NCBI GenBank assembly: GCA_003135135.1 | Contig: PLDK01000051.1 | Span: 22,002-61,908 of the forward strand | DNA: 39,907 bases | Direction: 5' to 3' | DNA from: Deltaproteobacteria bacterium | GTDB lineage: Bacteria; Desulfobacterota; Binatia; Binatales; Binataceae | Shown: piece by piece, positions 23,564-33,843 of the stretch | Position numbering within the stretch: position 1 is the first letter of the stretch | How the letters are laid out: every line of letters starts with the position of its first letter | Translations under genes and position numbers: made by a program | Notes under the pieces: generated by a model | The model's database searches: none | What the model was told of the DNA's origin: nothing | What the model saw: only the letters and a program-made list of their open reading frames with translations

Positions 23564-23952
23564 AGCGCTCCGGGCTTCTTTTGATGCAGCTGGAGATTCC
23601 GCGCCAATAAACAGACCGCCAGGACTCGTTTCGAGTATCAGGCCAAGTGCCCCAGGGCAGTTGAGGCGCTTACTGCCAAACGGGGAACGCTTGGCCGGGC
23701 TCTTTGACTTTCCCGCCGAGCACCGGATGCACCTGCGCACCGCCGACGTGTGTGCAACGGGCATCAAAGGAGAGCGCGTTTGGTCATCGGAAGAACAAAT
23801 AATGCAAATCGACGGGCTAAGCCTGACATCTAGTCTGCTAAAATCCAGTCGCGGAGCATTCGGGACCGGTGCGGCCAGCTATTCGCCGACTCTTAGACTC
23901 ATAACCAAGGTCAGTCGTCGCCGTATGTAAACAGTTTGGCAGGAGTTAAGAG
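23564..23952 (+). other. 389-bp intergenic stretch without a recognised gene
   Basis: This lies between the CoA-transferase and the P-type ATPase. Short open frames exist on both strands, but none matches a family I know and none has a good ribosome site. AGGAG about 7 bases before 23953 is the ribosome site of the ATPase. The length suggests a promoter and leader for that gene, or the remains of a decayed gene. Confidence 0.5.
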
Positions 23953-26682
23953 ATGGCTACCGAAAAGAGTTCCGCAGATGATGCGAAGAGCTCAGACGCT
24001 TCATCTGACTCCGCGCCAAACGGGTCCAAGGCTGTCGCTAAGTCCAAAGGATCGGAGCCCGGCGTGGACGAGATTCGCACGCGCGCCTACGAGATATTCC
24101 AAGCGCGCCACGGCGGACCGGGAAGTGCGCTCGGCGACTGGCAAAAGGCAGAGGCGTCAGCTTCCGCAGATGCGTTCAAGGCTGACACCTCCAAGGCAGA
24201 TGCGGCCAAAGGTGCGCAGACACCAGTTGATACCGGGACGATCCAGGAAGCGCTCGCCAAGTTCCATTCGAGTCTCGAACATGGACTAAGCCAGGAAGAA
24301 GCGGCGAGCCGGCTCAAGAAGGACGGTCCGAATGCTATCGAAGAAAAGCGCATCAGCCCCCTCAAGCGGTTCCTGACATTTCTTTGGGGGCCTATCCCAT
24401 GGATGATCGAAATTGCCGCGGTACTGTCCGCAGTGGTTCGGCATTGGGAAGACTTCGTCATCATCTTTTTCATGCTGGCGCTGAACGCGGTCGTCGGCTT
24501 CTGGGAGGAATTTAAGGCCGACAACGAGATCGAGGCACTCAAAAAGAATCTCGCACTACATTCCCGAGTGCTGCGCGACGGCAAGTGGAGCGACGTCGAG
24601 GCGAAGACGCTGGTGAGCGGGGATATTGTCATGGTCAAGCTCGGCAATGTCATCCCCGCCGACCTGAAGCTGGTCGATGGCGACTACCTCAGCATCGATC
24701 AGTCAGCGCTGACAGGCGAGTCACTGCCGGTCGACAAGAAGAAAAGTGACGTCGCGTATTCAGGATCGGTCGTGCGAATGGGCCAGATGAACGGGCTGGT
24801 CGTCGCCACCGGAATGAATACGCTATTCGGCCGCACGGCACGACTGGTCGAGAGCGTTAAGACCGTCTCCCACTTTCAGAAGGCGGTGATCAAGATCGGC
24901 AATTTCCTGATTCTGATCACGCTCGGCCTGGTCGCATTGATCCTGACGGTCGCGCTATATCGCGGCGACCCGTTGGTCGAAACCCTGCTGTTCGCGCTGA
25001 TTCTTACGGTAGCTGCAATCCCGGTCGCCTTGCCCGCCGTCCTGTCCGTCACGATGGCCGTCGGCGCATCCGTGCTTGCCAGAATGAAGGCTATCGTCTC
25101 CCGCCTCGTCGCGATCGAAGAGATGGCCGGCATGGACATTCTCTGCGCGGACAAGACCGGCACGCTCACCAAGAACGAGCTCAAGCTGGAAAAACCCGTT
25201 GTCTTCAAGGCGGGCAACGATCAGGACTTGATATTGGGCGCGGCTTTGGCATCGCGAAGGGAGGGCGGCGATGGCATCGACGAGGCGGTCCTCAAAGGTC
25301 TCCGCGATCAGTCGGTGTTAAAGACCTATCAAATCACTCATTTCACGCCTTTCGATCCTGTTAGTAAGCGAACCGAGGCCGAGGCCAAACACGACAACGC
25401 CGCTTTCAAAGTCTCGAAGGGCGCCCCGCAGGTGATTCTGGATCTGGTCCATCCCGATTCGGCGACCCGTGCTAAGGCTGAAGGCCAGGTGAACGAGCTT
25501 GCGGCCAAGGGCTATCGCACTCTTGGCGTCGCCCGCACCGATACTCAGGGGAAGTGGGAATTTCTTGGACTACTGTCCTTGTCCGATCCGCCCCGCGACG
25601 ATTCGGCCTCTACCATCGCGACCGCGCGAAACATGGGACTGCAGGTTCGCATGGTAACCGGCGACAACCTTGCAATTGCCCGCGAGGTATCGCTCGAACT
25701 CAAGCTGGGACCGAGCATCGCGGTTGCCGGCGATCTCTTTCCTGACGGTAAGGCCGACGACAGTGACAAGATAGACGCGGCCGACGGCTATGCGCAGGTT
25801 TTTCCTGAGCATAAGTTCAAAATCGTCAAAGCCCTTCAGGCTGGTGGGCATATCGTCGGAATGACCGGTGACGGCGTCAACGACGCCCCCGCGCTCAAAC
25901 GGGCCGATTGCGGAATCGCGGTAAGCGGCGCGACCGACGCGGCTCGTGCGGCCTCGGATCTGGTGCTCACGGCGACCGGACTCTCGGTAATCACCGCCGC
26001 CATTTCAGAAGCGCGCAAGATATTCGAACGCATGAACAGTTACGCAATCTACCGGATTTCCGAAACCATCCGCGTACTGCTTTTCATGACGCTCGCGATT
26101 GTGGTGTTTAACTTCTACCCGGTAACCGCAGTCATGATCGTGCTCATCGCGGTCCTCAATGACTTCCCGATCATGATGATCGCCTACGACAACACCATCG
26201 TAGCTCCACGCCCGGTGCGATGGGACATGGAACGCGTACTCACCGTCAGCTCGGTGCTCGGCGTGATGGGAGTTATCTCTGCGTTCGTCCTTTTCTGGAT
26301 CGGAGAGAGATACTTTCAGCTGCCCCGGCCCGTCATTCAGAGCCTCATATTCCTCAAGCTGCTGGTCGCCGGGCATCTCACCATCTACATCACCCGAAGC
26401 GTGGGAACGTTTTGGCAGCGCCCGTGGCCCAATTGGCGCCTGGTCGTTGCCTGCGAAACAACCCAGGTCATCGGAACCCTGGCCGCAGCCTACGGATGGG
26501 GCATGACGCCGCTGGGATGGAAGTACGCGCTGTTAGTGTGGGCCTATGCGCTTGTATGGTTCTTCATCAACGACATGGTGAAGGTCGAGGTTTACCGCCT
26601 GATGCATCTGGGGACCTCAAGCCATCAGCGCCACCTCGCAAGAGTCAACGCCAGCCTTCATCCGGCCCCAGCGGTGAAGTAG
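23953..26682 (+). CDS. Plasma-membrane proton-efflux P-type ATPase (P3A) with N-terminal DUF2934-like segment
   Basis: A 909-residue P-type ATPase. Residues 1-35 are Ser/Ala/Lys-rich and disordered-looking. Residues 41-67 (IRTRAYEIFQARH ... GDWQKAEA) match the DUF2934 pattern. From about residue 90 the P3A core runs: cation-ATPase N-domain, E256 in LTGES (actuator), phosphorylated D400 in DKTGTLT, MVTGDN and MTGDGVNDAPALK. TM6 carries AVLNDFPIMMIAYDN, where D737 aligns with the proton-carrying Asp of plant AHA2. It exports protons at ATP cost for pH homeostasis or acid tolerance. AGGAG lies 7 bases before the ATG. A terminator inside a MITE-like element follows. Confidence 0.92.
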   Translation: MATEKSSADDAKSSDASSDSAPNGSKAVAKSKGSEPGVDEIRTRAYEIFQARHGGPGSALGDWQKAEASASADAFKADTSKADAAKGAQTPVDTGTIQEALAKFHSSLEHGLSQEEAASRLKKDGPNAIEEKRISPLKRFLTFLWGPIPWMIEIAAVLSAVVRHWEDFVIIFFMLALNAVVGFWEEFKADNEIEALKKNLALHSRVLRDGKWSDVEAKTLVSGDIVMVKLGNVIPADLKLVDGDYLSIDQSALTGESLPVDKKKSDVAYSGSVVRMGQMNGLVVATGMNTLFGRTARLVESVKTVSHFQKAVIKIGNFLILITLGLVALILTVALYRGDPLVETLLFALILTVAAIPVALPAVLSVTMAVGASVLARMKAIVSRLVAIEEMAGMDILCADKTGTLTKNELKLEKPVVFKAGNDQDLILGAALASRREGGDGIDEAVLKGLRDQSVLKTYQITHFTPFDPVSKRTEAEAKHDNAAFKVSKGAPQVILDLVHPDSATRAKAEGQVNELAAKGYRTLGVARTDTQGKWEFLGLLSLSDPPRDDSASTIATARNMGLQVRMVTGDNLAIAREVSLELKLGPSIAVAGDLFPDGKADDSDKIDAADGYAQVFPEHKFKIVKALQAGGHIVGMTGDGVNDAPALKRADCGIAVSGATDAARAASDLVLTATGLSVITAAISEARKIFERMNSYAIYRISETIRVLLFMTLAIVVFNFYPVTAVMIVLIAVLNDFPIMMIAYDNTIVAPRPVRWDMERVLTVSSVLGVMGVISAFVLFWIGERYFQLPRPVIQSLIFLKLLVAGHLTIYITRSVGTFWQRPWPNWRLVVACETTQVIGTLAAAYGWGMTPLGWKYALLVWAYALVWFFINDMVKVEVYRLMHLGTSSHQRHLARVNASLHPAPAVK

Positions 26683-26743: not shown

Positions 26744-26932
26744 CTAGCAGGCTGTTGAAAAAGTAATTTTCAACGCCTGCTCCCTCTCTCTTGTCTCCCC
26801 CAAAAGGGGGTTTTTCACCGGTCTCCCACCTTTGGGGGAGATGTTGTAGGTAAGAAGACAGCTCTTACCCAGGATGTTGAAGAGCTTGAAGTCGAAAACG
26901 ACAATTGACCGAATTTTTCAACATCCTGCTAG
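26744..26932. mobile_element. MITE-like element with nested terminal inverted repeats
   Basis: The ends CTAGCAGGCTGTTGAAAAA (26744-26762) and TTTTTCAACATCCTGCTAG (26914-26932) are inverted repeats with one mismatch over 19 bases. CTAG at each extreme could be a 4-bp target duplication as made by some IS5-group elements. Each end has an inward inverted copy: TTTTCAAC-GCCTGCT at 26767-26781 folds the left end, and CAGGATGTTGAA (26870-26881) pairs perfectly with TTCAACATCCTG (26917-26928) at the right. GGTAAGA/TCTTACC (26849-26869) forms a further hairpin. At 189 bp it has no coding capacity, so it would need a transposase in trans. Confidence 0.6.
26797..26815 (+). terminator. Intrinsic terminator after the P-type ATPase
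   Basis: CCCCC-AAAA-GGGGG followed directly by TTTTT. It lies inside the MITE-like element, 115 bp after the ATPase stop, and reads in the ATPase direction. CTCCCCCAAA here also pairs with TTTGGGGGAG near 26830-26840, an alternative longer stem. Confidence 0.7.
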
Positions 26933-26959: not shown

Positions 26960-27430
26960 ATGAAATGGCCGGCAGGATTCGAACCTGACAACTCATCGGT
27001 GTACGCGCGCAATGATATTGCGATTGCCGTGCCGCCTGAGCGTGTATGGCGATGGCTCATTCGCGCCGCCCAGTGGCCCCAATGGTACAGCAACAGCGCC
27101 AACGTGAATTTCATTCGCGGCAATCCGCCCGACCTCGCGCCCGACACCGAATTTCGATGGAAGACGTTTGGCGCCACCGTCGCCAGCCGCGTGATCGTCT
27201 TCGAACCGCCGCATGAACTCGGATGGGACGCGCATGGAGTGCTGACCGCGTATCACGGCTGGCTTATCGAACCCGATGGCGGTGGCGGATGCCGCGTCAT
27301 CACCGAGGAATGCCAGAACGGTCTCGTGCCGAAGCTCGCGTGGTGGTATCTGCGCCCGATGCTCGAGCGCGGGCATCAGAACTGGGTCGAGAGCCTCAAG
27401 CGCGTTGCCGAAGGCGGAGTTCCGTCGTAG
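26960..27430 (+). CDS. SRPBCC (START-like) family protein
   Basis: A 156-residue protein of the polyketide cyclase/START ligand-binding superfamily. The N-terminal signature AIAVPPERVWRWLIRAAQWPQWYSN is the typical first strand and helix pair, and PPHELGWDAHGV and GGCRVITEECQNG are strands of the cavity. It binds a hydrophobic ligand; the substrate is unknown. GGAG lies about 12 bases before the ATG and only about 13 bases from the edge of the MITE-like element, so transposition may have replaced its promoter. Confidence 0.82.
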   Translation: MKWPAGFEPDNSSVYARNDIAIAVPPERVWRWLIRAAQWPQWYSNSANVNFIRGNPPDLAPDTEFRWKTFGATVASRVIVFEPPHELGWDAHGVLTAYHGWLIEPDGGGGCRVITEECQNGLVPKLAWWYLRPMLERGHQNWVESLKRVAEGGVPS

Positions 27431-33158: not shown

Positions 33159-33843
33159 CGCGGGGCCACACCACGATCACATGGATCGATTTGGGGCCGT
33201 GCACGCCGAGCACGATTCGTTTCTCGATATCCGCGGTGCGGCTGGGGCCCGTGATCAACGTCAATCGGTTCGCCGCGACGCCCTCCGGGCCCAACTCGGC
33301 GAGCACCGCCGCCAGGTTTGCCATCACGCGATCGATCTGAACGATCACCAGGCTCGCCGGCGGCAGCAGCGTCAGAGAACTCGGCCGATCCCCGTTTGAA
33401 ACTACTGCCACTGTGCCGGTCGAGGCGATCGCGAAGTCCGCGTCCGCGATCCCGATGTCGGCATTGGCCACCCGCTCGCGCATCGCGGCGCGCTCGGTGT
33501 CCGCCACCGGGATGGTGCGAACGATCCTGAAATCCGCACGCTCGAGCGCCTCGCCGATTGCGTCCATGTCGCTCACGGCGCCTTGTCCAAGCGCGACCGT
33601 CTTCGCGCCGATCTCGCCGGCGAGAGTGACTATTCGATTAGTCACTTCATCCGGAGTGAGTATTCCGAGGAACTTGCCGCCGACCGCTTCGAGCTCGCGC
33701 GCGAACGTCGATGCGAGCGCGGCGCGATGCGCCGACTGTGCCACGGGCACTGGCGCGCTCGCCGCCGCGTCGTGCGAGTTGCTGCGCGCGCCGACGCCGA
33801 GCGCGTCCTTTACGCTCGCGATTATTTTGTGAAGCTCGGCCAC
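33151..33843 (-). CDS. lutC: LutC-type LUD-domain protein (L-lactate utilisation)
   Basis: A 230-residue LUD-domain protein. The pattern IADADFAIASTGTVAVVSNGDRP followed by LLPPASLVIVQIDRV and ITGPSRTADIEKRIVLGVHGP is characteristic of LutC/YkgG. It starts with a GTG at 33843, 2 bases after the lutB stop, and overlaps lutA by 8 bp, so the three are tightly coupled. About 40 residues (33-75) form an Ala-rich linker. It is a subunit of the lactate-oxidising complex. Confidence 0.9.
   Translation of the reverse strand: MAELHKIIASVKDALGVGARSNSHDAAASAPVPVAQSAHRAALASTFARELEAVGGKFLGILTPDEVTNRIVTLAGEIGAKTVALGQGAVSDMDAIGEALERADFRIVRTIPVADTERAAMRERVANADIGIADADFAIASTGTVAVVSNGDRPSSLTLLPPASLVIVQIDRVMANLAAVLAELGPEGVAANRLTLITGPSRTADIEKRIVLGVHGPKSIHVIVVWPRDD

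What the first reader, a model, noticed from the sequence alone, without database searches (positions are those of the whole stretch)
23953..26682. Proton P-type ATPase fused to an N-terminal DUF2934-like segment
Residues 41-67 (IRTRAYEIF ... DWQKAEA) match the short helical DUF2934 motif, normally found as small separate proteins. It precedes a complete P3A ATPase core after a Ser/Ala/Lys-rich linker. Plant and fungal proton ATPases are regulated by terminal extensions, so this could be an autoregulatory or partner-docking module.
Basis: partly seen in the sequence, partly recalled or inferred. Interest (0 to 1): 0.62.

Follow-up and report, generated by a model that had tools for sequence, protein, structure and literature searches.

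The report
Proton pump with portable DUF2934 module
A bacterial proton pump carries at its front end a small helical module of unknown function that has been shared between two only distantly related pumps, and that also occurs at the tail end of similar pumps in other bacteria, which suggests a plug-in control or docking piece.

Summary
The fusion is real. ORF 23953-26682 (909 aa) is a complete P3A-type ATPase (TIGR01647, 971 bits, cut-off 615.5). Residues 39-68 match Pfam DUF2934 over the curated cut-off (25.9 bits whole protein, 30.8 for the N-terminus alone; cut-off 22).

(1) The only other DUF2934 match in this genome is on a second, distant P3A-like pump (cores 37% identical). The first 79 residues are 60/79 identical, and the DNA match (86%) runs only from 18 nt upstream of the ATG to about codon 80. 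Relatives show the same roughly 0.3-kb leader with both pump cores and several upstream contexts: a portable 5' cassette. (2) Pumps in genomes from three phylum samples, one of them the window's own, carry DUF2934 at the C-terminus instead; one P1B-like ATPase carries it at the N-terminus. (3) The 30 DUF2934 codons are more constrained than the flanking linkers, and AlphaFold2 gives a confident helical hairpin.

The module is not universal: the nearest A-type pumps outside the genus lack it. Best reading: a plug-in docking/regulatory tag. Docking versus autoinhibition is undecided. Passages of a 2023 review contrast prokaryotic P3A pumps with fungal and plant ones, which have extended regulatory termini.

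The parts
23953..26682 (+). P3A-type (proton-efflux) ATPase with N-terminal DUF2934, 909 aa
   Evidence: open frame, Pfam and NCBIfam matches over curated cut-offs
23935..24194 (+). Leader cassette shared with the second pump gene of this genome: ribosome-binding site plus about 80 codons (-18 to +241 relative to the ATG; up to -49 in comparisons with relatives)
   Evidence: 225/263 nt identical to the C46 pump gene; the alignment stops at both ends
23941..23945 (+). Shine-Dalgarno-like AGGAG inside the shared cassette
   Evidence: read; of five aligned leaders three read AGGAG, one GGGAG (G006B), one AGGGG (G001A)
23953..24066 (+). Residues 1-38: Ser/Ala/Lys-rich, probably flexible stretch
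   Evidence: composition; weaker constraint outside the DUF2934 segment
24067..24156 (+). Residues 39-68: DUF2934 (PF11154) helical hairpin
   Evidence: profile match; AlphaFold2 hairpin (block means 92-94 in residues 11-40 of the 54-residue model); constraint
24157..24228 (+). Residues 69-92: Ala/Ser/Lys/Asp linker; the A-to-B DNA homology ends inside it
24232..24429 (+). Cation_ATPase_N, residues 94-159
24559..25083 (+). E1-E2_ATPase (actuator) domain, residues 203-377; TGES at 254
25135..25908 (+). HAD hydrolase (P/N domains), residues 395-652; DKTGT at 400
26071..26073 (+). Arg707, aligned with chain residue 644 of 5ksd (Arg655 of AHA2 if the chain numbering is offset by 11)
   Evidence: alignment, offset inferred; role of Arg655 from passages of PMC10654040
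26161..26163 (+). Asp737, aligned with chain residue 673 of 5ksd (Asp684 of AHA2 by the same offset), the proton acceptor/donor
   Evidence: alignment, offset inferred; role

Best explanation
The gene encodes a P3A proton-exporting ATPase (by family; transport not tested) to which a DUF2934 helical hairpin is joined through flexible linkers. Shown: the fusion; the sharing of a roughly 0.3-kb leader (ribosome-binding site plus about 80 codons) between two distant pump genes of this genome and their relatives; DUF2934 at the opposite end of similar pumps elsewhere; stronger constraint on the hairpin than on the linkers. Inferred: the hairpin is a cytoplasmic plug-in module. Tethered next to the actuator domain, it binds a partner (another DUF2934 protein, a cytosolic enzyme or a regulator) and so places or switches the pump, perhaps when the cell lives on substrate-level phosphorylation (phosphoketolase-acetate kinase, PPK2) and needs an ATP-driven proton pump. 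Docking is preferred to a built-in autoinhibitor because the linkers vary in length, the module occurs at either terminus, and the same domain family is attached to unrelated proteins.
For: Profile matches over cut-off. Both DUF2934 matches in this genome are on P3A-like pumps; residues 1-79 are 60/79 identical against 287/771 for the rest, and DNA 225/263 over 263 nt only. All nine A-type versus B-type gene pairs align only from -18..-61 to +230..+253. G006A and the pump of YP4.bin102 share upstream DNA with the phosphoketolase end (88.5% over 712 nt) and the module (80.5%), but have different pump cores. The module DNA tree mixes A and B, AU p 0.034; dN/dS of the DUF2934 codons is 0.05-0.39 and that of the rest of the module 0.32-1.04, lower for DUF2934 in 15 of 15 (non-independent) pairs, nearly equal in two. 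C-terminal DUF2934 on four P3A pumps in two clades; N-terminal on one P1B-like pump. Phosphoketolase, acetate kinase or PPK2 genes lie within the DNA held (up to 10 kb each side) of 6 of the 10 fused P3A genes and of the P1B-like one. The Arg and Asp of the plant proton pump are kept in the window pump. Hairpin model, mean pLDDT 82.7.
Against: No experiment and no partner. Most P3A pumps examined lack the module (29 of 39 ingroup rows, one of them truncated), so it is not needed for pumping. Neither the window gene nor its G001 orthologue has any of seven tested island genes near it, and pumps without DUF2934 also lie in such islands; no control frequency of the neighbourhood was measured. One orthologue (G001) has a degraded DUF2934 without Asp62. 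The full-length model failed (mean pLDDT 33.5), so no contact between module and pump can be read. The B-type pump keeps the Asp but not the Arg in the alignment, so the two hosts may not move the same ion. dS of the 30 codons exceeds 1 in 7 of 15 pairs. The p-AU is modest.
Confidence: 0.5

Rival explanations
1. Autoinhibitory regulatory (R) domain: the hairpin folds back on the pump's cytoplasmic domains and holds it inactive until a signal (pH, phosphorylation, ligand) releases it, by analogy with fungal and plant P3A pumps.
For: Fungal and plant P3A pumps have regulatory N- and C-termini, and P2B pumps have R domains at opposite ends in animals and plants (passages of PMC10654040). Small fused 'plug and play' domains regulate bacterial transporters (passages of PMC10710835). 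DUF2934 occurs at either end of P3A pumps.
Against: No PDB sequence match for the module, no significant Foldseek match. Linkers are less constrained and vary in length. The same domain sits on Hsp20-like proteins and a glucanotransferase.
Confidence: 0.25
2. The shared segment is kept mainly as an expression leader (ribosome-binding site and start of the message) or is a neutral recombination scar; DUF2934 adds nothing to the pump.
For: The shared DNA includes the ribosome-binding site and starts just upstream of it. Parts of the module outside DUF2934 have dN/dS up to 1.04. One orthologue has a degraded hairpin.
Against: dN/dS of the hairpin codons is 0.05-0.39 and below that of the rest of the module in 15 of 15 pairs, though nearly equal in two (0.33 versus 0.34; 0.39 versus 0.40). 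C-terminal fusions elsewhere cannot act as 5' leaders.
Confidence: 0.2
3. Assembly or binning artefact: the fusion joins separate genes only in these assemblies.
For: The sources are draft or metagenome-assembled genomes.
Against: The N-terminal fusion is seen in four genomes and six genes with continuous frames and, within each type, cores 90-96% identical; C-terminal fusions in four further genomes.
Confidence: 0.02

Closest known systems
P3A plasma-membrane H+-ATPases (AHA2, Pma1; TIGR01647)
   Same: Whole catalytic core; 614 bits to AHA2 (5ksd), 587 bits to plasma membrane ATPase 1mhs; TM5 Arg and TM6 Asp kept.
   Different: N-terminal DUF2934 module. The review passages seen contrast prokaryotic P3A pumps with fungal and plant ones, which have extended termini.
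DUF2934 (PF11154) small proteins
   Same: Helical hairpin with conserved A, R, G, D-W and A-E positions; a small protein of the same bacterial family (G016/FK5.bin86, L077) is 66% identical over residues 39-67.
   Different: Here fused to a large membrane pump instead of a frame of 77-197 aa, as in the other 29 genomes of the family (21 with a match).
Regulatory (R) domains of P2B/P3A ATPases
   Same: Terminal cytoplasmic extension, at either end in different lineages.
   Different: No sequence or fold relation detected; autoinhibition not tested.
Plug-and-play domains fused to bacterial transporters (CBS, cyclic-nucleotide-binding, PAS, UspA; PMC10710835)
   Same: Small soluble domain recruited by different transporters.
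   Different: DUF2934 is not named in the passages seen; its ligand or partner is unknown.

Membership tests
P3A proton-efflux ATPase (TIGR01647) | Profile score over curated cut-off | tested here: met
   971 bits against 615.5; the second pump of the genome scores 596.1, just under it
P3A proton-efflux ATPase (TIGR01647) | P-type motifs TGES, DKTGT, GDGVNDAP | tested here: met
   residues 254, 400, 639
P3A proton-efflux ATPase (TIGR01647) | TM6 Asp and TM5 Arg of the plant proton pump | tested here: met
   Asp737 and Arg707 aligned with 5ksd residues 673 and 644; the second pump keeps only the Asp
P3A proton-efflux ATPase (TIGR01647) | ATP-driven proton export | not testable with these tools
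   needs purified protein or vesicles
DUF2934 (PF11154) | Profile score over gathering cut-off | tested here: met
   25.9 and 30.8 bits against 22
DUF2934 (PF11154) | Conserved residues of the family | tested here: met
   A45, R52, G57, D62, W63, A66, E67 invariant in 16 aligned sequences; the G001 orthologue, not in that alignment, lacks D62
Plant/fungal P3A R domain | Sequence or fold relation to a known regulatory terminus | tested here: not met
   no PDB sequence match at E 10; Foldseek best E 5.2. No R domain was compared directly
Plant/fungal P3A R domain | Truncation activates the pump | not testable with these tools
   needs an assay

The most novel reading that the evidence does not exclude
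DUF2934 is a shared plug for a mobile energy-conservation island: it links ATP-driven pumps (P3A, once P1B-like), physically or by regulation, to the phosphoketolase/acetate kinase/PPK2 enzymes encoded beside many of them. Bacteria swap pump cores behind, or in front of, the same plug, which gives prokaryotic P-type pumps a terminal control module gained repeatedly and at both ends.
Probability: 0.15. Interest if true: 0.8.

Novelty: new variant of a known kind. Interest (0 to 1): 0.6.

Why it matters
Passages of a 2023 review (PMC10654040) contrast fungal and plant P3A pumps, which have regulatory termini, with prokaryotic ones, whose transport function is called undetermined, and ask for P2B pumps whether R domains were swapped between ancestral forms. 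Here a prokaryotic P3A pump has a defined terminal module, shared by two distant pumps, and the same domain family occurs at the other end of related pumps. That makes the question of how terminal control modules arise and move testable in bacteria, and gives a molecular context for a domain of unknown function.

Tried and rejected
Full-length AlphaFold2 model from four sequences: mean pLDDT 33.5, discarded. PDB sequence search with the module: no match at E 10. Foldseek of the hairpin: 5 matches, best E 5.2, nothing usable. Long DUF2934 frames in G638 (792 aa), G1128 (673 aa) and G746 (396 aa): Pfam found only DUF2934; I judged the first two to be mechanical frames over small proteins. G292 (415 aa), G1255 (332 aa) and G1213 (523 aa) were judged so by eye. 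Several other frames of 300-500 aa were not looked at. Plasmid-borne pumps like that of G140: 62 records matched, 40 listed, four regions read. Three (Rhodococcus, Caballeronia, Acidiphilium) show no DUF2934 at either end by eye; the Sphingomonas frame was broken and its tail was not read. Query coverage stops before the DUF2934 tail in the other listed rows, which were not read. A tblastn of the G140 tail against plasmids gave 10 records, all under 60% identity; features named there are DUF2934 proteins or unannotated. That the module is general for the pump clade was rejected. Rfam: no match in the window. The nucleotide identity of the G140 and G709 tails (101/129) is about what 32/43 identical residues would give (my estimate), so it is not used as evidence of recent transfer. 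A binomial sum (P of 4 or more of 6: 2e-6 to 9e-5 if 2-5% of large proteins were P-type ATPases) rests on assumed fractions and is not used.

Full report
OBSERVATION. The ORF at 23953-26682 (+) is 909 aa. Pfam gives DUF2934 at residues 39-68 (25.9 bits in the whole protein, 30.8 bits for residues 1-93, cut-off 22), then Cation_ATPase_N, E1-E2_ATPase and HAD hydrolase. NCBIfam TIGR01647 scores 971 bits, cut-off 615.5. TGES, DKTGT and GDGVNDAP are present. The alignment to Arabidopsis AHA2 (5ksd) pairs Arg707 and Asp737 with chain residues 644 and 673, which I take to be Arg655 and Asp684 (offset of 11, inferred). Passages of the review PMC10654040 name these two as the residues that handle the proton.

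ORGANISM. G006 is listed as the same genus as the window genome G000. The window genome is therefore a Binatus-like bacterium; this is inferred.

TWO PUMPS, ONE LEADER. G000 has two DUF2934 matches. Both lie in P3A-like pump genes: the window gene (A) and one on contig C46 (B, L003:5830-8391; TIGR01647 596 bits, just under its cut-off). A and B share 60/79 identical residues at the N-terminus and 287/771 in the rest; the DNA match is 225/263 from -18 to about codon 80. In six genes (A in G000, G006, G001; B in G000, G006 and YP4.bin102, which is G438 and, by equal contig number and coordinates, G1195) all nine A-B pairs align only between -18..-61 and +230..+253. Upstream contexts differ: G000A and G001A share 4.2 kb of upstream DNA (91%), with about 1.2 kb extra in G001; G006A and YP4B share a stretch with the end of a phosphoketolase gene (88.5% over 712 nt), yet carry different pump cores; between phosphoketolase and pump both have a small His-rich ORF (read by eye). 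Cores are 93-96% (A) and 90-94% (B) identical within type, A to B 36-37%. The DNA of the G000A module is 86% identical to G000B's and to G001A's, but 77% to that of its orthologue G006A, whose core DNA is 92.2% identical. A tree of the module DNA mixes A and B; holding the A modules together is rejected at p-AU 0.034, which is modest. The synonymous distance of the module between the G000 paralogues (0.22) is below that of orthologous cores (0.25-0.37). The leader has therefore been exchanged between the two kinds of pump gene; direction and mechanism are not known.

SELECTION. Over 15 pairs, not independent, the 30 DUF2934 codons have dN/dS 0.05-0.39 and the rest of the module 0.32-1.04; DUF2934 is lower in all 15, nearly equal in two. 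The cores have 0.09-0.15 in six orthologous pairs. The codons are few and dS exceeds 1 in 7 pairs, so this is support, not proof. In G001A the hairpin has drifted (no profile match; sequence).

DISTRIBUTION. Family scan: 24 of 41 genomes have a pump match at E 1e-120 or better, 31 matches in all. I read the N-terminus of 27 of the 31 (window); the module is on six (G000 two, G006 two, G001 one, G1195 one). L107, L113, L114 and the third match of G029 were not printed. The nearest A-type pumps outside the genus (G017 66%, G029 65% and 62%, G032 57%, G034 51%) lack it. Of 29 other genomes of the family, 21 have a DUF2934 match, all in frames of 77-197 aa. DUF2934 scans of samples of four phyla: 46 of 395 genomes (own phylum), 75 of 347 (phylum of G443, titled Terriglobia bacterium), 88 of 398 (phylum of G441, titled Betaproteobacteria bacterium, match list truncated) and 60 of 392 (phylum of G440, titled Phycisphaeraceae bacterium). 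The tool scored only part of the candidates in many genomes. Among the listed matches the frames over 600 aa with another recognised domain are: the four pumps of G000 and G006, G140, G709 and G1292 (P3A-like, C-terminal DUF2934 at 47.7, 41.5 and 30.4 bits), G1369 (P-type pump, N-terminal, 38.3 bits; called P1B-like from a CPH motif read, subtype recalled) and a 4-alpha-glucanotransferase of G1292 (C-terminal, 43.0 bits). A further C-terminal case, G1609 (38.7 bits), is 87% identical to G709. A 615-aa frame of G1235 has no other domain at its cut-off; two more frames over 600 aa (G638, G1128) were judged mechanical. Smaller hosts: Hsp20-like proteins in three loci and an SRPBCC-like protein in one (recognised by eye). 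So DUF2934 is a promiscuous terminal module.

C-TERMINAL CASES. G140 and G1292 fall on the A-type side of the core tree (the pair itself has support 87, unstarred), G709 and G1609 elsewhere; N and C labels each need two changes, four in all, on a tree of 41 rows with one row (G1611, truncated) unlabelled (quick method; the G1292 row is partly masked). The tails of G140 and G709 are 32/43 identical with cores 41% identical. G1292 and G1609 each end in a second, degenerate DUF2934-like stretch that looks alike in both (by eye). Of 37 genomes of the order of G709, six have a match to its pump at E 1e-150 or better; besides G709 itself one (G1609) has the tail, one (G1611) is cut short, and the five pumps in the other genomes lack it where read (four of four printed).

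NEIGHBOURS. Seven island proteins were sought by tblastn in up to 10 kb each side of the eleven fused genes, less where the contig or fetched stretch ends; several queries come from these same loci. Phosphoketolase, acetate kinase or PPK2 is found beside 6 of 10 fused P3A genes (G006A, G000B, YP4B, G709, G1609, G1292) and beside the P1B-like gene; G006B and G140 have phosphoglucose isomerase; G000A (the window) and G001A have none of the seven. Pfam confirms the families. The window gene has an acetyl-CoA hydrolase/transferase gene upstream and a polyketide-cyclase-like gene downstream. Plasmid pumps without DUF2934 also sit with phosphoketolase or with acetate kinase and PPK2 (Rhodococcus, Caballeronia), so the island does not need the module, and no control frequency was measured.

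STRUCTURE. AlphaFold2 of 54 residues with 16 sequences gives two helices (8-21, 29-52) at mean pLDDT 82.7. Nothing can be said about contacts with the pump.

MECHANISM. The step from anatomy to function is inference. A short, constrained hairpin on less constrained linkers, at either end, on pumps and on unrelated proteins, fits a docking or plug-in role best (0.5); a pump-specific autoinhibitor is the main rival (0.25); leader or passenger is next (0.2).

LITERATURE. 'DUF2934' occurs in 4 papers of the library; I saw passages of two, where it is a table entry, and the listing of the other two. 'proton-efflux P-type ATPase' with 'phosphoketolase' occurs in none. Passages only were seen of PMC10654040, PMC10710835 and PMC8262859. 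Other papers appeared only in search listings.

Noticed in passing
26745-26931: Inverted-repeat element of about 187 bp (18-bp ends TAGCAGGMTGTTGAAAAA; no match in 100 shuffles) starting 62 nt after the pump's stop codon; one end is found again on contig C32 (L092). It looks like a small non-autonomous mobile element.
   Followed up: partly
about 26966-26990 (-): The ORF at 26960 starts MKWPAGFEP; the reverse strand resembles the 3' end of a tRNA (by eye). It may be a remnant of an integration site; ARAGORN and Rfam report no tRNA there.
   Followed up: no
33320-33401 (-): ARAGORN reports a tRNA-Ser (gct) that Rfam does not report at its gathering score.
   Followed up: no
L132 3660-5957 (genome G1369; L152 7750-9957): P1B-like ATPase with N-terminal DUF2934 and a His-containing stretch, in a cluster with acetate kinase, phosphoketolase and class I aldolase.
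   Followed up: partly
L131 1948-3807 (-) (genome G1292): 4-alpha-glucanotransferase with C-terminal DUF2934, next to an isoamylase-like gene; the same genome has a P3A-like pump with C-terminal DUF2934.
   Followed up: partly
L078, L081, L084: DUF2934 at the N-terminus of Hsp20-like small heat-shock proteins in genomes titled Bryobacterales and Terriglobia (by eye).
   Followed up: no
L090 5713-6063, and L138 upstream of the pump gene: Small His-rich ORF with a hydrophobic stretch between phosphoketolase and the pump gene in YP4.bin102 and UBA7539; the L090 one has no Pfam match. Possibly a small pump-associated membrane protein.
   Followed up: partly
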